From: Hypomyces perniciosus
Lineage: Eukaryota > Ascomycota > Sordariomycetes > Hypocreales > Hypocreaceae
Reading direction: 5' to 3'
Assembly (NCBI GenBank): GCA_008477525.1
Contig: SPDT01000001.1
Location: 1,736,001 to 1,800,000 of the forward strand
Length of the DNA stretch: 64,000 bases
Shown here piece by piece: positions 1 through 12,504 of this stretch (position 1 is its first letter; the number at the start of each line of letters is the position of its first letter). The notes under the pieces are model-generated. The model worked only from the letters and a program-made list of their open reading frames with translations. It did no database searches and was not told the DNA's origin. Made by a program: the position numbers and the translations under genes.

Positions 1-1804
1 TATAAAGCAGTTGTAGCTGCCCAAGAAGGTGATGAAGGCTGATCCATCAGCTGCAAGAGGGAGAAGGCCGTAAGCATTGGACACAAGCGATGTGGAGCGG
101 GAGGGAGAGGAATCTTACTCAACAACTTCCATGGAACGATGGCCAAAGACAGTACTCCACAGAAAAGCTGCCCGCGGACGATTGTGAATACCTTCGGTAG
201 CAGCCCCGTAACATCGGCTCCTGGGAGAGAAGGTCAGGATTCAGGATCAAGCAGGGGATTGATCTCATCTAGGAATGTACTCACCAAAAGGAATGGCATT
301 ACATCCAATATTGACGCCCAGGACTGACAGAGTAAAGCCAAACGAAGCGAAGAAGCATCCCGCACGAGCTGCCGGGCCCCAGAATCGATCGAGGATGGCG
401 TTGAGAAGATCCCATTGGTTCCAGTACGCCTGGCCGAATTTGCCCTGAACAGCAGCGGTGGCACCAATACCAAAGAAGAAAATGAGCGTCTTGCTGGCAA
501 AGATGGACGATGCCTGTCTCCATCCAGCATCCTTGGGTCTTCGGGTGTATCGTGCAAGGTCAGGTTGCTTTTGTCATTTGTTAGTCACTGACATACCGCT
601 CAGATCCAGACTGGGATGGATCGGTACTTACATTGACCAACAGCGCAGACGTAACACCCAAGCAGCTGTTGATGCCACTGAGCATTGCCCATCCTAAGGA
701 TCCGCTACTCGCTGGCACATCCGAAGTAAGTGTGTTGACTTGAATGCCCCCGCCGTATGAGACGCACCAGGCAAAGACACCGATGCAAGCCACAGGGCAA
801 ATGAAGGACTCGGCCTAAGTGATGAACCATGGTCAGGTTCAAGCTGTAATGAACGATGTTGAAGGGTATACGAACTGCAAACAGGAACTTGATTTTGGAT
901 GGATGTACTGCCAGGAAAGGCATCTCGAGAATCCAGAACAGGAAAAAGGCCAAGAGATCTCTCGATGTGATGCCAGCACTGGCGGGGAGGTTGTTGGCCA
1001 TCTGCCACCAAGAGTCGCCAAAGATGCATCTCAGAAGAACACTGAGCAACTGGGATCCGAAGTAAGATTGGACTCCAAACCTGGAGGATTGTTAGTCCTG
1101 AGCCATGCCTCCGCCAAGTGATTCACGATTCTATCACTTACCAAATGATGGCCACGACGGCGCGGACCCAAACGAAGAAGAATTGGCCGTACCTACCATT
1201 ACCAGTAAGTACATGCAACGGGCATCGAGACTTGGGATACATCTCAATGGGGGCTGGGGTTTATTAATACTGACATTCCAAAAACTCCTCTAGCGAGGAC
1301 AGGATAGCCGATGTGGTATTTCGCACCAGGCCGGCCGATGGCTAAAGCCACCGCGGACGAGAGAAGGTTCGCCTTGTGGTTTTTAGTGAAATTCCGCAGT
1401 TTTTTCTGCCATGATGATACTCACAATCATGCATGAGATCAAGGCTTGCCACCAGTTCAAGCCGACAGCGATCAGACTGGCTCCGTTGGACCATTGACTC
1501 GCGTTGAAGGCGTTCTGAGACATCGCACATCATATCAGCAATGTGTTTAAGAAGCCGAGCAAGGAAATTGGTTTACATACACCCCACCAGTAACTGCTGA
1601 GCGAGATCCTGTATTGGAGGTCAGCGGGATGTGTGAGGCGAGATTGCCAAGGTATGACACGTACCATGACCATGTTCTGGCGCTCTTAGGCGTAGGAGCA
1701 AGATCTTTGTTGATCCATGTTGAGGATTTGGTGCCATCCGCAGAGTCTGTACTCAACGCTTCCTTCCACTCCGCCTTTGAACGGGGAACCTGCGGCAGCT
1801 GCAT
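1..1804 (-). CDS. NCS1-family permease (uracil/allantoin/hydantoin transporter type), C terminus cut by window edge
   Basis: Ten exons on the minus strand: 1804-1665, 1608-1581, 1514-1425, 1372-1275, 1192-1142, 1080-876, 814-632, 567-285, 220-119 and 50 to beyond the edge. All joins keep frame with GT-AG introns of 56-82 bp. The start at 1804 gives a cytosolic N terminus carrying the NCS1 hallmark NKDLAPTP...RTWSW. Then come GLNWWQALISCMI, GRPGAKYHIGYPVLARGVFG and IIWFGVQ (the segment that supplies the substrate-binding Trp and Gln in Mhp1 and fungal Fur proteins), then NQPDLARYTRRP. The family moves uracil, allantoin, uric acid, hydantoin or related ureides across the plasma membrane with H+ or Na+. 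It is divergent from the hydantoinase at 2353 and shares a promoter gap with it, so it is the likely uptake step of this cluster. The exact substrate cannot be read from sequence. The last helices lie outside the window. Confidence 0.9.
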
Positions 1805-2352
1805 GTTGGACGCTTGAGAGGTGCTGTTTTGTCGGCCGGCGATGCTCCAGATCTGCTTACAGACGGCCGAGATGGAGCCTATGTCTTATACAGCTCGGAG
1901 CATGTTCATGAAGCTTGTCACCAATCCGCTTATCACAGCCTATCTCAGTGTTATTGTTGTCAGACCACGTCGGTTGATCCGAAGTTGATGTGATCATATC
2001 AGCGTTCCCAAGTGCAATCATAAGGTATATTACACACGATGATAACGAAAGCCTAAATACGGGCGATAATGGCTGATAAATGGGACGGAAACTAGAACTA
2101 TCGGGTCGACCCGATGACAAGGGCTTTTATCCGTCGCTCACTTTTAGATCATCTCCGACAATCTTGTTATCGGCCCGTAGCCCTTGTTTATTACACCAAG
2201 AACGAAGACTAGAGCTTCTCATTGGAATGTAATCTTGAGTCTAAACGTGAGTTGCTCTTCGGATGCCGTTAACCTGCCAGCAGTCGCCACGTCTTGCTCA
2301 GGCCCAATTGCAGTCTTTACCATAGCATATGAGAACTTCGAAGCGGGATACC
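1805..2352. promoter_or_regulatory. Bidirectional promoter between permease and hydantoinase 1
   Basis: This 548-bp gap separates two divergent genes. It holds a perfect 16-bp palindrome at 2100-2115 whose core 2101-2114 is TCGG-GTCGAC-CCGA, the Ppr1/UaY-type site. A related TCGG-N5-CCGA occurs at 1970-1982. Three GATA boxes (2041-2046, 2065-2070, 2075-2080) fit nitrogen-metabolite control by an AreA-type GATA factor. Site identity is seen directly; its use by the regulator at 5452 is inferred. Confidence 0.7.
2101..2114. promoter_or_regulatory. TCGG-N6-CCGA palindrome (site 1)
   Basis: TCGGGTCGACCCGA, extended by A/T on both sides to a 16-bp perfect palindrome. It lies about 300 bp from the permease start and 240 bp from the hydantoinase 1 start. 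It matches the CGG-N6-CCG rule known for Ppr1 and UaY Zn2Cys6 dimers. Confidence 0.75.
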
Positions 2353-4053
2353 ATGCAGGAGTTCGATACCATCCTGCGCAGTGCTTGTGTCAATGGCTCC
2401 TTCGTTTGCGATATAGGGATCAAGCGCGGGATTATCACAAGCCTAGGCATTGATCTTGTTGCAACGGAAGACACTCAAGTCATCGACTGCCAGGGGGCTG
2501 TCGTGACGCCGGGTGGGATTGATGGCCATGTACATCTGTCCCAGGATCGCTCTCCTAGAGCAAAGGAGGCAGGTTATGTCAGTGCCGACACAAGTACGTT
2601 TCCTATTATTCTACCAAGTACACTCTCACGTTCTCCGCTGACATGATTCCTCAGTCGAAACAGGTACAAGGAGCGCCGTGGCTGGAGGAACTACCACGGT
2701 GATACTCTTCGCGGAGCAATCCAAGGGCCAATCTCTAAGGGAGCAAGTTGAGAAATACCATGCCCTTGCAGATGAGCAAGGGTCGTATGCAGATTACGGA
2801 TTTCACGCTATCATCACAGACCCTACAGAGCAAGTGCTAGAACATGAGCTTCCGCAGCTTGCCCATGAAGGGGGTATTATGAGCATAAAACTGTTTCTCA
2901 CGTACAAACACATGAGGATATCAGATCGCCAGGTGCTGCTGGCCCTGAAAAAGGCCCGGGAGCTGGGCATGGTGGCGCTTGTGCACGCAGAGAATGGCGA
3001 TCTCATCGACTTTTTTACCGAGCATCTAGAGGCCCGAGGCCTCACAAACCCGATGTTCAAGGCCGTAGCACATCCCCCCGAAGCTGAAGCTGAAGCCGTT
3101 AACCGCGCCATTACATTTTCCTCCGTCATGGATACGCCAATGCTTATCGTTCACGTCTCTGTCCAGCAATCCATGAACGTCATTCGCAAAGCTCAGTCAC
3201 TTCTGAAACCAGTATTTGCAGAGACATGTCCCCAGTATCTGCTACTAGGGAAGGAGAATCTAGATAGAGAACATTTTTGCGGCGCAAAGTTCATCTGCTC
3301 CCCTCCTTTGCGCAGCGATCCGAGAGACATTGAAGAGATTTGGAGAGGGATCACCAATGGCACATTTACCATCTTCTCATCTGACCATTGCCCATATCGG
3401 TACGGAGCCCCAATCTTGGATCGTTTGCCACCATAACTGGCCAGCTTACATCGACATAGATTTAACGACAGCAGGGGGAAGAAGCTAGGCCTCTCATGTG
3501 GCGGAGATGAGAGCCCAAAGGGAATGTACGTCGTCTCTGTTCATTAAATCGACCGCAGAAAAAGAACCGTGACGTGTGAAAGCTGACCACTAGAAGATTT
3601 ACAAAGATACCAAATGGCCTACCAGGAGTAGAGACACGGATGCCCTTGCTCTTCTCTGAAGGTGTTCTCAAGCGTCAGTGCATTGACGTGAAGAGGTTTG
3701 TTGAATTGACATCTGAAAACCCCGCCAAATTATACGGCCTCTATCCAAGAAAAGGCGCCATCCAAATCGGTTCAGACGCAGACATTGTTATATGGCATAG
3801 CCAGAGCACGTTTACTCCCAGGAGGTTGGAGCACGATCGAGATCTGCATGACGGCTGTGACTATTCGCCATATGAGGGAATTGAGTTTTTGAATTGGCCC
3901 AAGACAGTCCTCCTAAGGGGCAAAGTAGCCTTTCAGGATGGTCTTGTAGTGGGAGAGAAGGGCTTTGGGCGGTTTATGAAGAGGAAATCGTGTGTTCTGC
4001 CTTACCAGCGTCGGATGGGCAAGGAATGGGATGTGCTACGTGCTGCCATATGA
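2353..4053 (+). CDS. Dihydropyrimidinase/hydantoinase-family amidohydrolase (paralogue 1)
   Basis: Four exons: 2353-2593, 2655-3399, 3460-3525, 3594-4053, giving 503 aa. The ATG at 2353 (MQEFD) aligns with the paralogue at 8683; an in-frame ATG at 2329 would add 8 residues. The binuclear-metal amidohydrolase signature is present. GGIDGHVHLSQ supplies the HxH pair (about H59/H61). SIKLFLTYK supplies the lysine that is carboxylated in the family (about K159). HAENGD and LIVHVS give the two metal histidines, and SSDHCPYRF the catalytic Asp. The C-terminal part has the usual SENPAKLYGLYPRKG and a small beta domain. Enzymes of this family open 5,6-dihydropyrimidine or hydantoin rings hydrolytically in the cytosol. 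Length is normal (about 500). The third exon is only 66 nt. It sits between the permease and the racemase-like gene, so it is probably the first catabolic enzyme after uptake. Allantoinase is less likely given the motifs. Confidence 0.9.
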
Positions 4054-4276
4054 GAGATAGGCACCAAATGCCCAACATCAGCATTTTATACAATAAATTA
4101 TTTGTAAGTTCGACGGTTGACGGTTGGATCCCTCGTCTGTTCGATAGCTTCGACGACTCACGAGAGAATGCCTACCCAGGGGTCGGGCATAGTCCTGCTG
4201 GTGCCATATCCCACGGCGAATACATTGCCAATAAATTCATGAAGGAATGATAATATGCGCGGTATACGTTCGAGTC

Positions 4277-5026
4277 TCAGCTAAATATTGATCCCCACTC
4301 ATCTGCCAATTCCCGTGAAGGTATGCCGAGCTGTTGAAGCATACTATACACAACAGTTGCTACCGAATCGAGAACTGTAATTTGATACTTCTTCTCCCAG
4401 GCTCTTGTCCTTTTTGCTGCCGCAAGATTGGTACAGACGATGAGGACAATCTGAGCACCATTGTTGACGACTCGTCCCATCATTTCATCCAGTTCTGTCT
4501 CCTGCACGTTGGCAAAGTCAAAATTGGTGGACAAGCCTGCGCATCGTGACCTATCATCGCTAATAGGCAGGGCTTCGGCCGTGAAGTTCTTGCAGATTGC
4601 AGCATTGACTTCTGGCAGGTATGGCGTTACTATGCCGATCTGAGGTTGAGATGCATGTGTGCTTCGCAGTATGTCCCTCATCGCCAACACCGAAGACGTA
4701 GCCGGTATGCCCGTCGTGTCTTTGATCTTTTGACAAAGGGTCTCGTCCGACGAGAATCCTAGCCAGGATGCTGACGTGCCACTCCACCCAATGATGTCGA
4801 CCTTTGCGTCAGCCAAAAGCCTGGCTGCCTCGAGCATTGGCTCTAAGGTGAATTGAGACGTTGACTCGTCGGACAATTCAATTTTGGTGACTCGAAATCT
4901 TGCGAAATGAACGCTGACATGTGGAAGGCCAGCAACCATTTGCTGTGTCAATAACTCCAAGACCGTGTTCGAAGAGGGTACAATAACTCCCAAGCGAATC
5001 CTGCGAGGGTTTGGTTGTGGCGCCAT
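4277..5026 (-). CDS. Asp/Glu racemase superfamily enzyme, arylmalonate decarboxylase/maleate isomerase type
   Basis: Single exon, 249 aa, starting at 5026 (MAPQ); an upstream in-frame ATG at 5110 would add 28 residues without family similarity. The N-terminal GVIVPSSNTVLE motif is the signature of maleate cis-trans isomerases and arylmalonate decarboxylases. The second half has VLIVCTNLAA with the catalytic cysteine (C198) and the ending VLDSVA. The first catalytic cysteine expected in two-base racemases and isomerases is Gly83 here, in the string GTS (G83-T84-S85). With Tyr136 this matches the Gly-Thr-Ser/Tyr/Cys set of bacterial arylmalonate decarboxylase. It is therefore probably not a simple hydantoin racemase; decarboxylation of a malonate-type acid or another one-cysteine reaction is possible. 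It is convergent with hydantoinase 1 and divergent from the regulator, which places it in the cluster. Confidence 0.82.
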   Translation of the reverse strand: MAPQPNPRRIRLGVIVPSSNTVLELLTQQMVAGLPHVSVHFARFRVTKIELSDESTSQFTLEPMLEAARLLADAKVDIIGWSGTSASWLGFSSDETLCQKIKDTTGIPATSSVLAMRDILRSTHASQPQIGIVTPYLPEVNAAICKNFTAEALPISDDRSRCAGLSTNFDFANVQETELDEMMGRVVNNGAQIVLIVCTNLAAAKRTRAWEKKYQITVLDSVATVVYSMLQQLGIPSRELADEWGSIFS

Positions 5027-5298
5027 GATTTGGTTGGTGTCTTGGTACGAGTTGATGAAGGTCGAATCCTGCTGAGTAGTTTCAAGACGATAACATCTGA
5101 AGATGGCCATTCATTTGGATCTAGAGATCATTTGATCCTCCCCTGCCTACGCATTATGACGGCTAAAACCAATAATTGCTACATATGGAAAAGCGAGCCG
5201 TCGGCGTTTGGTGGCGTCAATAGCGGCTGGAACTGATAAGAGGGCGAAGCGTTCAAGCCAATGAGGCGGATCGGTCCGATCATTATGTGATATTGGTG

Positions 5299-5312
5299 TC
5301 GGATCCTTCCGA
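5299..5312. promoter_or_regulatory. TCGG-N6-CCGA palindrome (site 2)
   Basis: TCGG-ATCCTT-CCGA, about 270 bp upstream of the racemase-like start and 140 bp upstream of the regulator start. Same half-sites and spacing as sites 1 and 3. Confidence 0.75.
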
Positions 5313-5350
5313 TGGTTGATAAGGAATGTAATAATATGGCGATCCCCACG

Positions 5351-5385
5351 GTTCGGAACCGTCTTCGGAACCGTCTTCGGAACCC
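5351..5385 (+). repeat. 12-bp tandem repeat with CGGAACCG units
   Basis: Three head-to-tail copies of about 12 bp (unit TTCGGAACCGTC). The first two contain CGG-AA-CCG (5354-5361, 5366-5373) and the third is degenerate (CGGAACCC, 5378-5385). It lies 67 bp upstream of the regulator ATG, so it may be in the promoter or 5' leader. Confidence 0.8.
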
Positions 5386-5451
5386 GGTTTCGTCGGTATC
5401 TTTCCAAACCGTGACAATTGTCGCTTGAATCCGACGCCCGATATCGAGGAA

Positions 5452-8010
5452 ATGACCGATGAGGATCACGACAGACATGCACGTCCCGCCAAGAGACCCC
5501 GGGTCTTAGTCGCGTGTCAAAGATGCAAGAGTCGGAGACAAAAGGTCAGATAATACTGAAGGGATTAAAGAATATCCTAGTTGAGCCATTGAGTGACTGA
5601 AGAGAGACAGTGTGACAACTCGAGCCCAGCATGCTCGAACTGCAACAGGGCCAATGTGCCCTGCATATACACAAATCATGCCTATCCCCCATCTTATGTG
5701 AAAAGGCTGGAAGAACGAGTCCGCCAACTTGAGGGGAATCTCGCTACCAACAATGGCATTTCGACCCCATCACGATCAATCAGCAACCAAGATGGCCTCC
5801 ATATACCGAGAGAGGAAGTGATGGCGCCCGCTCATTTGGCCAGCCCTGTATCAACCCTTTCACAGGCAAACGAAGAGGTCCCAGGCGAGCTGCGATCTGG
5901 CAGACTTGCTCTAGGATTGGGAGTGTTGTCCTCGTGCGCCGCAGCTGAACCTCACTACTTTGGCTTCTCTGCTGGATTGAGCCTTGCGCACTTCGTCCAA
6001 GTGGCCATAGATTCTGGAGGCAACCCTGCAGAGGCAGATGTCTCTCTACCTCTGCTCGCGGACCGGCCGTTCTCTAACCAAGCACCAAAGGCCAACACCA
6101 GCTTAGCTGATCCTCCCACATTCAAGGCTGGTGTCAGTTACATACGGGCCTATCTGACATCTGTACATCCGTTGTACCCATTCTTGAATCGACAGAGGCT
6201 GTGGCAATTACATAGATCCATCACGAAACATCAGGGAGATCGACATGCAGTCAATGTGGAGAAGATTGACCTGACCATAATGCACCTGGTGTATGCTGTT
6301 GGGTCAAGATGTCTTCAGTTGCTTGGAAGGCGTGGCATTTCGAGCGCAGTTCCTGAAGGCCATTTTCTGAGCGCCATGAAAAACATTGACGAAGACCTCA
6401 AGTTCACGAGCACCAAGTCCATCGAGGTGACGCTGCTTCTGGCCATCCATTCGATGCGGTCTCCATACGGTAAGTCAACTGTCTCGCCGCCACCAGAGGC
6501 CCTTTCGCGCTCTTGGGAGGGGGCAGCATGTACTGACAAGATCTCTTCGATCAAAGGCACCAGTGTTTGGCATCTCTCTGGTCTAGCTATTCGACAATGC
6601 CTCGAGCTGGGACTACATAAACAGCGCATCATTGATCGTCAAAATACAGAGGTCGATCAGTATCGAAAGCGGTTATTCTGGAGTGCGTATATCTTTGAGC
6701 GAAAAACAGCCCTCGTTCTAGGTCGACCGTTTGCCCTTTCTGATGAGGAAATTGACCTTGATCTGCCGGCAAATATGGATGATACTCACGATGAAAACAC
6801 AACAGAGGGTGCGCATGACGACAGTCCAGGCCAGCAACCCCAGGAGAGAACGACTTTGAGCTTTCACCGGTATCATGTACAGCTTTACCAAATCCACACA
6901 CAGCTTCGATTAGCTTTATACCAAATGAGGAAGACAGCCTCGAAGGAGCAGTTGCGTATGACGATTTCTAGACTACTTGATGAACTTGATCATTGGCGAG
7001 AGCAGGTCCTGGAAACTTTTCATGAGACTTCAAAAGGACCGCCACTCCCTCCGCGACCGCCTACAGATAGCTCTGAGGACCAAGAGGCTATCGATAGCGA
7101 GGAGTCATCTCCAGGCGGCGGACGCAAGAGAATGGCTGTATATAGGCCTGTCGAAGTCGAGAAGAACGAGCTGCTATTGGAGTATCACAAAGCTCGGAGG
7201 TCTTTGCTGCAACCCTTGATGACAGAGAGTCGCCACAACTACACCTTCGATGTGGCAGACTATGCAGCATGCGCAGAGGCATCTGGCCAGATATGTCAAC
7301 TTTACCGACGACTTCATCGCTTTTCGCCAGTACCCTTCACACTTAGGGACTTGCATGCCGTTTTCGTGGCAGGCTTCACCTTGATATACTGTGTGTGTAC
7401 CTGTCCGGCCATCTATTCTGTGGAGCGTGTCAGCGACGTTGGGGCTTGCTCTACTGTTTTGTACGTCATTACCGAGCAGTGGTCCAGCGCGAAGAAGTAT
7501 CGCGATGCTTTCGAGACGATCGCGGAGAAGATGATGGACTCAGCCAAGAGATTTCACCAAGGGAATTCCATAGTCTCGACAATGGCAAGCCACCAATGCC
7601 ACTATGACTCTACTAATCAGGAGCCCAATAGCGGCGTAGGATCTAACCAACAAATGATGAGACAGCATGAAGGGCCTCAGGAACTAGGTGATTTTGCTCA
7701 TGCCGCATCAGATTCTCTAGAAGGTACCAAGGATGGAGCTATGAGCGCATCTCACTCCATACGACTTGGTGCGATTTCGACGCAGGCCTCCGAGGATCGC
7801 CCCTTGCGGTCCTTGTTACCGTTTTCTCAATCCATCCCATCGTCCTCTTCATCGTCATTGAATCTTGGTATCGGGCCATATAGTGACACCACGCAGTTTG
7901 TGACAGCAGGACGAGAAGGAATAGGTTTGGACCTCGACTCAGATATTTCTGATATCGAGAGACTCATTTCAAGCGAGGGAATTGACTGGTTTACCGAGGC
8001 TATACTATAA
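5452..8010 (+). CDS. Zn2Cys6 transcription factor of the Ppr1/UaY type, cluster regulator
   Basis: Three exons: 5452-5544, 5611-6469, 6557-8010, giving 801 aa. The first intron falls inside the zinc cluster. Splicing restores CX2CX6CX6CX2CX6C (Cys 22, 25, 32, 39, 42, 49). The second intron (87 bp, no stop, so it could be misread as coding) is supported because removal restores HSMRSPYG-TSVWHLSGLAIRQC, the core of the fungal-specific transcription factor domain. The linker PPSYVKRLEERVRQLE just after the cluster resembles the P-SYV-LE-R linker and coiled coil of Ppr1-like regulators, which bind CGG-N6-CCG. The middle homology region runs roughly residues 170-600. A Ser-rich and acidic C terminus may activate transcription. 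It lies centrally in the cluster and TCGG-N6-CCGA sites are in every promoter gap around it, so it most likely senses a pathway intermediate and activates the five genes. Confidence 0.88.
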
Positions 8011-8413
8011 TCATTCTTATCAGGTATTAATCATAATTGTCTTCTAATGTTGGCTTCACCTTTGTCCTGAAGCATTCGGCCATCTTCAAGTCGATCTCGA
8101 CATTCTGGTCTCGCACTGTCTGAATTGAAGGAAAGAAAAGATACATACATATTTCCCTACACCCTCGGCTCACCGCGTCTAAACAACACAGATAAAGGCC
8201 CAGTGAGAATAGCGATGAAGAGTGAATTACTACTCGTACCTGGGGAGGAGTCCCCAAACTTTGCCAGTAGGATTAGCTAGTTCAACAGTCATTCTCTCAG
8301 GAATCTTTTACGCATGAATGATTCCTATTAGTTTGGTGCATATAAGTAATGGTCCAAAAGCTAGACCGCGGACTGGCGCCACAGCCCACCCATATGGGTC
8401 TTCCGACATGCAG

Positions 8414-8427
8414 TCGGACTGATCCGA
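8414..8427. promoter_or_regulatory. TCGG-N6-CCGA palindrome (site 3)
   Basis: TCGG-ACTGAT-CCGA, about 256 bp upstream of the hydantoinase 2 start. The arms extend to TCGGA...TCCGA. Confidence 0.75.
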
Positions 8428-8682: not shown

Positions 8683-10436
8683 ATGGATGCGGATCTGGTC
8701 GTACGCAACGGAATAGTGGTGACAGCTTCCGATGTCTGGCCTGAGAGCGATGTTGTAATCAAGGCAAGATACGTCCATAAAATGTGGAAGTACTATTATG
8801 ATCCTAATCCCCTAATCTTTAGGATGGTGCAATTATTGCTGTAGGGCGTAACCTACCATTAAAGGATGGAGTCGAGGAGATTGATGCCCAAGGGGCTTAT
8901 GTCACTCCTGGAGGCATCGATTCCCATGTCCATTTGTCGCAGTGGTGGAATCCGGGACCAGATGACCCACAGAGGACGATCCCTACGGATGGCCAGATCC
9001 CCAATCTCGATAGCTTTACCGGAGATACATATGAGACGGGATCTAGGAGTGCCATTGCGGGGGGCACAACCACCATCCTCAGTTTCGCCCTACAGTTTCG
9101 AGAGGATGAGAGCATCATCCCAGTCATAGATGAGTACCACAAGCTTGCCGCCGGTCAGTCTTACTGCGACTACTCCTTTCACGTCATCATCACGAATCCG
9201 TCACCGCGCGTCTTGGAGCAGGACTTCCCAGTGATGGTCGAGCAATATGGCATCACAAGTGTCAAGATTTACATGACTTACGCTGCTTCCAAGCTCAGCG
9301 ACTATCAGATCCTGGATGTCCTGTACTCAGCGCGGAAGCTAGGAATCACCACTATGGTTCACGCAGAGAATGCAGACGTCGTGGACTGGATGACCGAGCA
9401 GTTGGAGAAGAAGGGCATGGTTGCGCCGCATCATCATGGGACATCCAGGCCGCCAATTGTTGAAGCAGAGGCGACAGTAAGTCATATAGTCGTCATCCTT
9501 TATTCGTGCGTCTTCGCTGCTCTTGATGACATGATTGTGGCTTTGACGCTTAGCTGAATGATACAGCTGACTCTAACATGGCAAACCTAGAACCGTGTTA
9601 TTAGCCTTTCGGAACTCATGGATACACCCATCTTGCTTGTCCATGTGTCTAGCGAACTTGCTGCAACGACCGTCCGGAACGCCCAGACGCGGCTCCTCCC
9701 GGTTCATGCTGAGACATGCCCCCATTATCTCTATCTCATGGCGGACAAGATGCGAGCCAAAGGCTTTGAAGGTATCATTAACAGCCCTCCCGTTATTTAA
9801 ATAAATCATCTAATGACGTCTCTAGGAGCTAAGTGGGTTTGCTCCCCGCCACTGCGTGAAGATTCATCAGACCTCGAGGCCATCTGGCGTGGTCTACGCA
9901 ACGGCACTTTCACCACCATCTCCTCTGACCACGCCCCAGACAGCTACCACCACCCACAGGGTAAGCAAAGATGCCTGGCTCATACGACTGAGCCTTATGG
10001 AAAGTTCAACGATATCCCAAATGGCCTTCCTGGTTTGGAAACACGTATGCCGCTGCTCTTTGAAGGCGTCTTGGATGGGAAGATCACACCGCAGAAGTTT
10101 GTTGAGTTGACGGCATCCAATCCGGCGAAGCTGTACGGCTTGGATAAGAAAGGCACCATTGCGCTAGGATTCGACGCCGACATTACCATATGGTACCCCG
10201 AGGGCGGCATTAAGCCATTTCGGTTGACGAATGACATGCTGCACCACCGGGTCGATTATACGCCATATGAGCAACGACAGTTCAGGAATTGGGCCAGGTT
10301 TACGATACTGAGGGGGAAAGTGGTTTTTAGGGAGGGAGAGCTGCTTGGAAATGTCAATGATGGGAGGTTTGTGAAGAGGGGGCGCTCGTCGCTCGCAGGA
10401 CCACGAAATGTCTGGACTTCAGAATGGAGGCCGTGA
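8683..10436 (+). CDS. Dihydropyrimidinase/hydantoinase-family amidohydrolase (paralogue 2)
   Basis: Four exons: 8683-8763, 8823-9476, 9591-9771, 9826-10436, giving 508 aa. The first intron uses a GC donor (AAG|GCAAGA) and a TTTAG acceptor; the join gives VVIKDGAIIAVGRN, as expected for the family. Metal and active-site motifs are complete: GGIDSHVHLSQ (about H62/H64), SVKIYMTYA (carboxylated Lys about 175), HAENAD, LLVHVSS, SSDHAPDSY. It keeps the same overall plan as the enzyme at 2353 (shared PNGLPG-ETRMPLLF, NPAKLYGL, YTPYE/YSPYE segments). It differs in the substrate-side loops: a longer loop after HVHLSQ (WWNPGPDDPQ) and a different segment after SSDH. The two copies therefore probably act on different ring substrates or enantiomers. 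It is the rightmost clear member of the cluster. Confidence 0.9.
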
Positions 10437-10679: not shown

Positions 10680-11471
10680 TTACATGACGAGGTATGGCTT
10701 CTCTGCCGTAGCTTCTTCAATAGTCTCATCTGCCTCGAAATGCGTCCTCGTAAATCCACTCGGCATCTTCCCCAAACCCTCCAGCGAATTCCGAACGCCA
10801 AACACCATCGGCGGTGACCCCATAGCTAGCGTCACACACGCTGATAGTATAAGAGCATCAAATGCTCGCAATGGCCTCGTCAAAATGGCTGGCGAGCCGA
10901 TATCCCCTGGGGGCGAGAGGTCAACAAAATACCACATCCGGCCTGCTGCGTAGTACAGATTAGATGGTGCCAGCGCGCGCGAGATTACGGGTTTATCGTT
11001 GAACGGGCCCGGCACCTCAGCGGCCGCAGGGTCGACGGGAAGCGGACCCGGCGGCTCCTCACGGAGGAATTCCGACATGGCCCTCCGATACGCGTTGAAT
11101 GCCCGCACGGCGTGGGCGTCTCCAACCGCCGGCGTCTTCCGGCCGACCTCCCAAAGGTGCCGCTCCCTACCATCGGCAGTTTTGACTACGGCCCAGGTGT
11201 GGCCAACGTCTTCGCCGGAAGGGTACACCTCCTGGCCCTGCGCCGGGTCGGGACTGCGGAGGCCGAACCATATATCGACTTGTTCGCCCTCGCTCATGCA
11301 GGCGAGCATGGTCTGATAAAGCATGGCGAGATGGGTTCCGCCGCCGGGGGCATTGAGGATGAGCTCATCGGCGTAGGAGAGGACGCAGGAGCGAGAGAAG
11401 AATATGTGGCCTTGAGCGTTGAGGATTTCGTCTTTAGCTTCTTTGCCGGGGACAAAGCGCATGCGATCCAT
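10680..11471 (-). CDS. Uncharacterised protein, 263 aa
   Basis: Single exon starting at 11471 (MDRMRFVPGKEAKDEILNAQ), convergent with hydantoinase 2 (243 bp apart). I do not recognise the family. It has no obvious signal peptide. The central part is polar and Pro-rich (EEPPGPLPVDPAAAEVPGP). A hydrophobic segment near residues 205-225 (FDALILSACVTLAMGSPPMVF) could be a buried helix or a weak membrane span. The N-terminal part reads like a soluble globular domain (MLYQTMLACMSEGEQVDIWFG, GHTWAVVKTADGRERHLWEVG). The region is GC-richer than its surroundings. Whether it belongs to the catabolic cluster is open: no TCGG-N6-CCGA site was seen on its upstream side (11472-12504). Confidence 0.7.
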   Translation of the reverse strand: MDRMRFVPGKEAKDEILNAQGHIFFSRSCVLSYADELILNAPGGGTHLAMLYQTMLACMSEGEQVDIWFGLRSPDPAQGQEVYPSGEDVGHTWAVVKTADGRERHLWEVGRKTPAVGDAHAVRAFNAYRRAMSEFLREEPPGPLPVDPAAAEVPGPFNDKPVISRALAPSNLYYAAGRMWYFVDLSPPGDIGSPAILTRPLRAFDALILSACVTLAMGSPPMVFGVRNSLEGLGKMPSGFTRTHFEADETIEEATAEKPYLVM

Positions 11472-12504
11472 TATGGCGGGATCAGTACTACTGGGAATTT
11501 ATCCATCTTGACCGAATTCTGTTTCACTACGGAGTATCATGTTCCACGAGGCTGATGTTAGCTATCCAGAATGTGGCGGCAGCTGAGCCGTAACTCGTAT
11601 TATGGATGTCGATCACAGCTTGCCAACTCGCATCCAATTCTGATGCTCTACCGACGACATTTCCCTTTCCTCGAAGATGAAGATGCATTGACCTGCAAAC
11701 GTCGCCGACTCTCGCCAAGCTCCGCCCAACCCCCGGACAGAAGCACGAATAAGTCCGTCCCGAAGGCGTCGGATTGTCGCCGCGATGTTCCTAACCCTTT
11801 CCCATCGGGGACCTTCATACATACCTACCTAGGCCTAGGTATGTATGCATGATTAAGCAAGCATGGAAAGCTGTTTAGCGTCAATGACGGCGCGCACGCC
11901 ATGGTCGCCGAAAATTCGCACATCCATCTTATTATTATCGCCGTCTCGGCGTCCAGAGCCAAAAGCTAGGGCCAACACTAGAGCAATCGGCGACTGTTGC
12001 ATCATCTAATACAGTGGTGATGAGAAAACCCGGCGTCTTGGTGCTAGTCTGTGTAAAGTACTCCGTACGATGTACTCGGTAAGGAAAATAGTACGAAAGA
12101 TTTGGATCAAACTGACCGATCGAAAAGCTCCCCGAAACTTATTGTCCGGCGACTTATACGGAGTACGCTTGGCAACTCGGGGTCCTGGCCTAGTGCTCCG
12201 TTTGCGTCATAAAAAATAGCACAAGAGTGATTTATAAATGAAGACTGAGGTTTCTCGGGGTTATTCTCCGGCGACCTTGGATGGACTCGGACTGTCGGCT
12301 TATATATAATACATACTTCTCCTACACTTGGCAATTCTGGCCTCTTCATAGTCCTTGCATCTTGCTTTCGATTTTTAAATACACGATAGATCTGACGTCT
12401 CCTGCATGACCTTTACGATTCACGACTGTTCTCTGCTTTTGAATTTTAAGTTTGCTCGGTTCTCTTAATTCCTTGACATTTTGAACTTGGTTCCGTTGAT
12501 CACC
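11472..12504. other. Intergenic, divergent promoters
   Basis: No supported gene. It contains copies of the dispersed motif (GTACTCCGTAC at 12058-12068, TACGGAGTAC at 12157-12166) and TA-rich leader sequence near 12296-12315 upstream of the sulfur transporter. Confidence 0.6.

What the first reader, a model, noticed from the sequence alone, without database searches (positions are those of the whole stretch)
2100..8427. Three perfect TCGG-N6-CCGA palindromes, one in each promoter gap of the cluster
Sites at 2101-2114, 5299-5312 and 8414-8427 share identical half-sites and 6-bp spacing but different central bases. They fall in the three intergenic gaps that contain promoters, covering all five genes. 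Eight fixed bases are expected about once per 65 kb by chance. The consensus equals that known for Ppr1 (pyrimidine pathway) and UaY (purine utilisation), and the cluster regulator has the matching zinc cluster and linker. This predicts a closed regulon with autoregulation.
Basis: partly seen in the sequence, partly recalled or inferred. Interest (0 to 1): 0.88.

Follow-up and report, generated by a model that had tools for sequence, protein, structure and literature searches.

The report
Shared operator in fungal hydantoinase cluster
In this fungal genome a five-gene cluster, which likely imports and breaks down a ring-shaped nitrogen compound, carries the same DNA palindrome pattern in each of the three gaps upstream of its genes, where the cluster's own control protein is predicted to bind and switch on all five genes; the pattern also stands upstream of two genes likely used to take up or break down purines, so it is probably not private to this cluster.

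Summary
TCGG-N6-CCGA occurs three times in the window, at the stated places, one in each promoter gap of a cluster of NCS1 permease, two dihydropyrimidinase/hydantoinase paralogues, an AMDase-like enzyme and a Zn2Cys6 regulator. A fourth site (7 of 8 bases) lies 33 bp from the middle one. Of 48 CGG-pair architectures, only CGG-N6-CCG is in all three gaps (0 of 2000 simulations; 4 hits, 0.30 expected). The genome holds 402 full sites. Where listings are complete (171 sites, 15.5 Mb) this is the only trio within 6.3 kb; 0.41 is expected by chance.

Close relatives keep the regulator's zinc cluster and a short linker, and the neighbourhood recurs in other ascomycetes. But the linker (9 residues) is shorter than Ppr1's (13). 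The genome's Ppr1/UaY-type protein is a different gene, and the same operator stands before an allantoinase and an NCS2 permease. A "closed regulon" is therefore unproven: two regulators may share one operator. Binding, induction and site conservation in relatives could not be tested. In 54 of the 80 bacterial loci kept, the AMDase-like gene lies near a hydantoinase gene, a lead to its unknown substrate.

The parts
2101..2114 (.). Full site 1, TCGGGTCGACCCGA, in the divergent permease/DHP1 gap; all 14 bases palindromic
   Evidence: gap test
5299..5312 (.). Full site 2, TCGGATCCTTCCGA, in the divergent AMDase-like/regulator gap
   Evidence: gap test
5266..5279 (.).
8414..8427 (.). Full site 3, TCGGACTGATCCGA, upstream of DHP2
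   Evidence: gap test
1..1804 (-). NCS1 permease gene (PF02133), running off the window start; its frame ends at about L044:9473. Start codon provisional
   Evidence: sequence and frames; Pfam 242.8 bits, cut-off 23.5
2329..4053 (+). DHP1, dihydropyrimidinase/D-hydantoinase; exons 2329-2593, 2655-3399, 3475-3525, 3594-4053 (model by hand)
   Evidence: model; TIGR02033 462.2 bits, cut-off 393.25
4277..5110 (-). AMDase-like protein (Asp/Glu racemase superfamily), single exon; start likely the ATG at 5026
5452..8010 (+). Zn2Cys6 regulator; exons 5452-5544, 5611-6469, 6557-8010 (model by hand)
   Evidence: model; PF00172, PF04082; Ppr1 best; relatives
8683..10436 (+). DHP2, second dihydropyrimidinase/D-hydantoinase; exons 8683-8763, 8823-9476, 9591-9771, 9826-10436 (model by hand); first intron GC-AG
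   Evidence: model; TIGR02033 443.4 bits
1930..2172 (.). Seven HGATAR (GATA-factor type) motifs around site 1
   Evidence: 7 against 1.96 simulated, P 0.003; 0 of 212 overlapping 500-bp windows in 10.5-64 kb reach 7

Best explanation
The three TCGG-N6-CCGA palindromes, one in each promoter gap of a five-gene cluster, are likely operator sites at which the cluster's own Zn2Cys6 protein is predicted to bind as a dimer and switch on the permease, both hydantoinase paralogues, the AMDase-like enzyme and itself. Shown: the sites, their placement, the gene families, and a zinc cluster and short linker kept in close relatives. Inferred: two zinc clusters each read one CGG half-site, and the linker and coiled coil set the 6-base gap, as in Ppr1. 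The inducer would be a cyclic ureide (hydantoin or dihydropyrimidine type) or a product of it, taken up by the permease and ring-opened by DHP1 and DHP2. A GATA factor (AreA type, recalled) would add nitrogen control, most clearly in the permease/DHP1 gap. Because the same operator stands before an allantoinase and an NCS2 permease, the genome's separate Ppr1/UaY-type protein could also bind here, so the regulon is probably overlapping, not closed.
For: Sites and placement. Only CGG-N6-CCG of 48 architectures is in all three gaps. 36 loci around other regulator-like genes of this genome, 120,672 bases with overlaps and duplicates, hold 0 full sites (about 1 expected at the genome rate). Regulator: PF00172 and PF04082 over cut-off; Ppr1 is the best solved relative. 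Of 14 close relatives aligned, 13 keep the full zinc cluster with CQRCK at its start (the 14th, P0135, lacks the first half in its model) and all 14 keep AYPx[SA]YVKxLE after it. Neighbourhood, by consecutive locus tags: Sporothrix bragantina DHP1/AMDase-like/regulator 7526-7528; S. curviconia AMDase-like/regulator 7993/7994; Exophiala xenobiotica 2524/2525; E. spinifera 06583/06582; Phialemonium thermophilum regulator/DHP1 4336/4337; in Fusarium beomiforme regulator and hydantoinase run together in one annotated protein (P0125). Of the 22 best regulator hits (P0121-P0142), 14 lie on a contig of the same length as an AMDase-like or DHP1 hit, or are fused to a hydantoinase; the other 8 could not be placed. 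GATA motifs.
Against: No binding or expression data. The linker is 4 residues shorter than Ppr1's and is 9 residues in 7 and 10 in 7 of the 14 close relatives; 8 more distant relatives vary more. The motif is not private to the cluster: 402 copies, two of them before an allantoinase and an NCS2 permease. Genome-wide, a trio this tight is expected 0.67 times by chance. GATA enrichment is carried by gap 1; gaps 2 and 3 alone are not enriched (P 0.38 and 0.20). Neither carbamoylase-type locus (TIGR01879) has a full site in its own promoter, so a complete pathway is not tied together by this operator.
Confidence: 0.66

Rival explanations
1. The sites are operators of the genome's separate Ppr1/UaY-type protein (C3:4305724), so the cluster is part of the purine-use regulon, and the local regulator uses other sites or acts through a partner.
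For: That protein has a Ppr1-like linker and the SYVFYLETR segment. The same operator stands before an allantoinase and an NCS2 permease. Allantoin is itself a hydantoin (recalled). The only other site trio within 7 kb in the 15.5 Mb examined is at the allantoinase locus.
Against: The cluster has its own regulator, kept beside the enzymes in other ascomycetes, and its zinc cluster is also Ppr1-like. The uricase locus and two further PF00860 permease loci have no full site.
Confidence: 0.17
2. Both proteins bind the same sites: a shared operator on which a purine-responsive and a cluster-specific activator compete or cooperate.
For: The same 8 bases occur in the cluster and before the two purine-type genes; both proteins have Ppr1-like zinc clusters.
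Against: Different linker lengths could give different spacer preference; nothing tested.
Confidence: 0.1
3. Chance: an 8-base palindrome that happens to fall in the three gaps.
For: 9 of 100 shuffled windows reach three matches; 0.67 trios expected genome-wide.
Against: Only promoter gaps are hit in this window; unique among 48 architectures; a fourth near-perfect site.
Confidence: 0.07

Closest known systems
Ppr1 (Saccharomyces cerevisiae; solved as 1pyi), CGG-N6-CCG
   Same: Zinc cluster is the best solved match; same half-site, orientation and spacing in the candidate operators; SYVxxLExR segment after the linker. CGGN6CCG for Ppr1 seen in a passage of PMC11534201.
   Different: Linker 9 residues against 13; the genome's own Ppr1-like gene is elsewhere; sits in a cluster with hydantoinases, not with pyrimidine synthesis genes.
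UaY of Aspergillus nidulans (purine use), TCGG-N6-CCGA (consensus recalled)
   Same: Same operator by recall; likely a catabolic nitrogen cluster with GATA motifs nearby.
   Different: Not the orthologue; enzymes of the cluster differ from purine-use enzymes; UaY binding data not seen in any call.
Arylmalonate decarboxylase / maleate isomerase branch of the Asp/Glu racemase superfamily
   Different: Lacks the AMDase-specific GLIVPPAxGxVPxE and ILLSCGGL patterns; NCBIfam cut-offs not reached for AMDase (45.3 of 225) or ectoine EutA (54.5 of 318).
Bacterial hydantoinase operons
   Same: AMDase-like gene with a dihydropyrimidinase gene in 54 of the 80 bacterial loci kept (best 80 of 565 confirmed), directly downstream within 100 bp in 40.
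   Different: Ten neighbours sampled include ABC-transporter parts, GntR/FCD regulators and an amidase; no hit to the NCS1 permease in the 80 loci; Zn2Cys6 regulators are a fungal family (recalled).

Membership tests
Zn2Cys6 fungal transcription factor | PF00172 zinc cluster and PF04082 domain over the curated cut-offs | tested here: met
   33.5 bits (cut-off 21) and 90.5 bits (cut-off 23)
Ppr1/UaY orthologue | Zinc cluster closest to Ppr1 among solved structures | tested here: met
   1pyi E 9.8e-08, ahead of LAC9, HAP1/CYP1, LEU3, GAL4, PUT3
Ppr1/UaY orthologue | Linker of Ppr1 length (13 residues from last Cys to SYV) | tested here: not met
   9 residues in the regulator and 13 in Ppr1; 9 or 10 in 14 close relatives; about 13 in the product of C3:4305724, read by eye across a putative intron
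Ppr1/UaY orthologue | Binds CGG-N6-CCG | not testable with these tools
   sites present; binding needs an experiment
Dihydropyrimidinase/D-hydantoinase (TIGR02033) | Over the equivalog cut-off of 393.25 bits | tested here: met
   DHP1 462.2, DHP2 443.4
Dihydropyrimidinase/D-hydantoinase (TIGR02033) | Metal-site motifs HxH, K, H, H, D (residue roles recalled) | tested here: met
   D[GS]HVHL, S[IV]K, VHAEN, VHVS and SSDH in both
Arylmalonate decarboxylase | Pfam Amdase (PF17645) over its cut-off | tested here: met
   46.3 bits, cut-off 25.9
Arylmalonate decarboxylase | Gly at the first catalytic position, Cys at the second | tested here: met
   GTS and C226 in the window protein; W-x-G-T-[SA] in 119 and CTN[LV] in 111 of the 120 best homologues listed, out of 4166 hits; rule from PMC4996985 passages
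Arylmalonate decarboxylase | AMDase-specific patterns GLIVPPAxGxVPxE and ILLSCGGL; NCBIfam cut-off 225 bits | tested here: not met
   window protein reads GVIVPSSNTVLE and LIVCTNLA; 45.3 bits
Hydantoin racemase / maleate isomerase | Two catalytic cysteines | tested here: not met
   first Cys position is Gly-Thr-Ser; two-Cys rule for racemases from PMC12661438 passages
NCS1 permease | PF02133 over the cut-off | tested here: met
   242.8 bits, cut-off 23.5 (partial protein assembled by hand from exons)

The most novel reading that the evidence does not exclude
A cyclic-ureide breakdown module found in both bacteria and fungi, built around a hydantoinase and an AMDase-like enzyme that acts on the ring-opened ureido acid, has in ascomycetes been placed under a dedicated zinc-cluster activator that evolved, independently of UaY, to read the very operator used by the purine regulon, so that two activators with different linkers share one operator in one nucleus.
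Probability: 0.22. Interest if true: 0.72.

Novelty: new member of a known kind. Interest (0 to 1): 0.47.

Why it matters
If true, it pairs an uncharacterised zinc-cluster regulator, kept in several ascomycete genera, with its operator and targets, and gives a natural case of two regulators with different linkers using one operator. It also points to a substrate class for an AMDase-like enzyme branch. [quoted passage not shown]

Tried and rejected
Considered and rejected: (a) 'Ppr1-type regulator with matching linker': rejected, the linker is 4 residues shorter. (b) 'Closed regulon': not accepted, because of full sites at an allantoinase and an NCS2 permease. (c) The AMDase-like protein as a hydantoin racemase or maleate isomerase: the first catalytic Cys is missing. 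As a true AMDase: its specific patterns are missing. (d) A missing carbamoylase under the same operator: two TIGR01879 loci; the only full site there, C7:332266, lies inside the next reading frame.

Led nowhere: viral-contig scans for the AMDase-like protein and the regulator found no relatives. In the rows listed by paper searches (8 to 15 rows each at most, out of up to 340 papers) I saw no study of this cluster; I saw listings, apart from passages of PMC12661438, PMC11534201, PMC5488104 and PMC5729217 and the abstract and passages of PMC4996985. That is not proof of absence from print. Loci of other regulator-like genes gave 0 full sites in 120,672 bases, which is compatible with about 1 expected. 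The first bacterial reading-frame screen missed many AMDase-like genes because longer frames masked them, and was replaced by tblastn.

Results against my reading: 9 of 100 shuffled windows reach three matches; 0.67 trios expected genome-wide; GATA motifs not enriched in gaps 2 and 3 alone; linker length not constant in relatives; in Phialemonium the tags put DHP1 next to the regulator, without the AMDase-like gene between; uricase and two PF00860 permease loci without a full site. The genome count includes recurring copies: TCGGGTGGTCCCGA or its complement is listed at five places.

Limits: no fungal DNA collection was available, so site conservation in relatives was not tested. The synteny statements rest on locus tags and equal contig lengths in protein listings, which showed the best 120 of 4166, all 75, and the best 120 of 7934 hits.

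Full report
OBSERVATION. Shuffles of the window reach three in 9 of 100 cases, so the count alone is weak. The whole genome (44.0 Mb, 23 contigs) holds 402 sites, one per 109 kb. Placement is the strong part: all three are in the three promoter gaps of one cluster. In a test that did not presuppose the spacing, I counted 48 arrangements of two CGG triplets (inverted, everted, direct; spacers 0-15) in the three gaps. Inverted CGG-N6-CCG was the only one found in all three: 4 hits against 0.30 expected. Of 2000 first-order Markov simulations, 0 had it in all three gaps and 1 reached 4 hits. The fourth hit, GCGGATCGGTCCGA at 5266-5279, is 33 bp from site 2 and was not in the finding. Of the window's 18 CGG-N6-CCG cores, only the three full sites have both outer bases.

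CLUSTERING IN THE GENOME. Listings by spacer base, are complete for contigs C3 and C4 and for the first 3.25 Mb of C5: 171 sites in 15.5 Mb; the other sites were not placed. One trio fits within 6,327 bp, this one (0.41 expected). Within 7 kb there is one more, at the allantoinase locus. So tight clustering alone could be chance; clustering confined to promoters is harder to dismiss.

GENES. From left: an NCS1 permease on the minus strand, running past the window start; DHP1; the AMDase-like gene on the minus strand; the Zn2Cys6 regulator; DHP2. Both DHP proteins pass the D-hydantoinase/dihydropyrimidinase cut-off and keep the metal-site motifs (roles recalled). They are 46 and 50% alike in the two stretches matched. 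In the genome the AMDase-like protein has no other match at E 0.01, and the only other match of DHP1 is the allantoinase. The 20 kb to the left of the window holds no full site; in the 10 kb next to it I recognised the permease end, and did not scan the other frames against family libraries.

REGULATOR. Ppr1 is its nearest solved relative. I aligned 22 relatives, 14 close and 8 more distant. Of the 14 close ones, 13 keep the full zinc cluster starting CQRCK; one (P0135) lacks its first half, perhaps a gene-model fault. All 14 keep AYPx[SA]YVKxLE directly after it, with 9 residues before [SA]YV in 7 and 10 in 7. The distant ones vary more. The regulator itself has 9, Ppr1 has 13. A search of the genome with the Ppr1 segment found its best match at C3:4305724 (57% identity over 44 residues). 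That product reads CVGYDPITKKEIPR and, across a putative intron, SYVFYLETRVEQLE. That gene, not the cluster regulator, is the Ppr1/UaY-type protein here.

SHARED OPERATOR. As an in-genome control I read 7 loci (42.5 kb) of purine or hydantoin genes: uricase, three PF00860 permeases, two carbamoylase-type loci and the allantoinase. Full sites: 4, against 0.39 expected. Two are upstream of genes: about 415 bp before the NCS2 permease at C4:3762 kb and about 246 bp before the allantoinase, start codons provisional. The allantoinase name rests on its two exons, searched apart: each has TIGR03178 as best model, neither alone reaching the whole-protein cut-off. The other two sites lie inside reading frames of neighbouring genes. 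Uricase, two PF00860 loci and one carbamoylase-type locus have none. So the operator is present at likely purine-use genes of this fungus, and the cluster's regulon cannot be called closed.

NITROGEN CONTROL. HGATAR motifs (GATA-factor sites, recalled) number 13 in the three gaps against 5.6 simulated (P 0.003). Seven are in the permease/DHP1 gap; none of 212 overlapping 500-bp windows in 10.5-64 kb reaches 7. The other two gaps alone are not enriched. This fits use of a nitrogen source; it is inference.

CONSERVATION. Consecutive locus tags join DHP1, the AMDase-like gene and the regulator in Sporothrix bragantina, in the same order as here. The AMDase-like gene and regulator are neighbours in S. 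curviconia, Exophiala xenobiotica and E. spinifera. In Phialemonium thermophilum the regulator and DHP1 are neighbours, so the order differs there. In Fusarium beomiforme the regulator is annotated as one protein with a hydantoinase, as the regulator-DHP2 order here would suggest. These are Sordariomycetes and Eurotiomycetes (classes recalled); in Hortaea, a Dothideomycete, a weaker regulator hit and a DHP1 hit share a contig length only. Of the 22 best regulator hits, 14 share a contig length with an AMDase-like or DHP1 hit or are fused to a hydantoinase; 8 could not be placed. DNA of these fungi was not available, so whether the sites are kept is open.

VERDICT. The sites are very likely real operators. 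The cluster's own regulator is the best candidate to read them (0.66); the purine regulator (0.17) or both together (0.10) are the live rivals, chance the rest (0.07). As regulation this is a new member of a known kind. The unusual parts are the shared operator with a different linker, and the pairing of a hydantoinase with an AMDase-like enzyme in both bacteria and fungi.

Noticed in passing
5352-5384: Three tandem copies of TTCGGAACC at 12-base spacing (two continue as TTCGGAACCG, i.e. CGG-N2-CCG), about 70-100 bp before the regulator's start codon.
   Followed up: no
8764-8822: The first intron of DHP2 is GC-AG, not GT-AG, in my gene model.
   Followed up: no
1930-2172: Dense HGATAR motifs in the permease/DHP1 gap.
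   Followed up: partly
L046-L125: AMDase-like gene with a hydantoinase gene in 54 of 80 bacterial loci, 40 directly downstream within 100 bp.
   Followed up: partly
L020 and L021 (G000:C9:125167-125970 and C9:155811-156614): Two Zn2Cys6-type genes with equal scores on opposite strands 30 kb apart, likely an inverted duplication.
   Followed up: no
G000:C3:4490736, C3:4532763, C3:5151350, C7:314711, C8:1604892: The same 14-mer TCGGGTGGTCCCGA or its complement recurs, likely inside a repeat, and adds to the genome count of 402.
   Followed up: no
G000:C3:4309224: A full site about 3.4 kb on the upstream side of the zinc-cluster exon of the Ppr1/UaY-type gene; too far to call a promoter site.
   Followed up: no
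10680-11498: Minus-strand reading frame of 272 residues without a Pfam match, next to the cluster.
   Followed up: no
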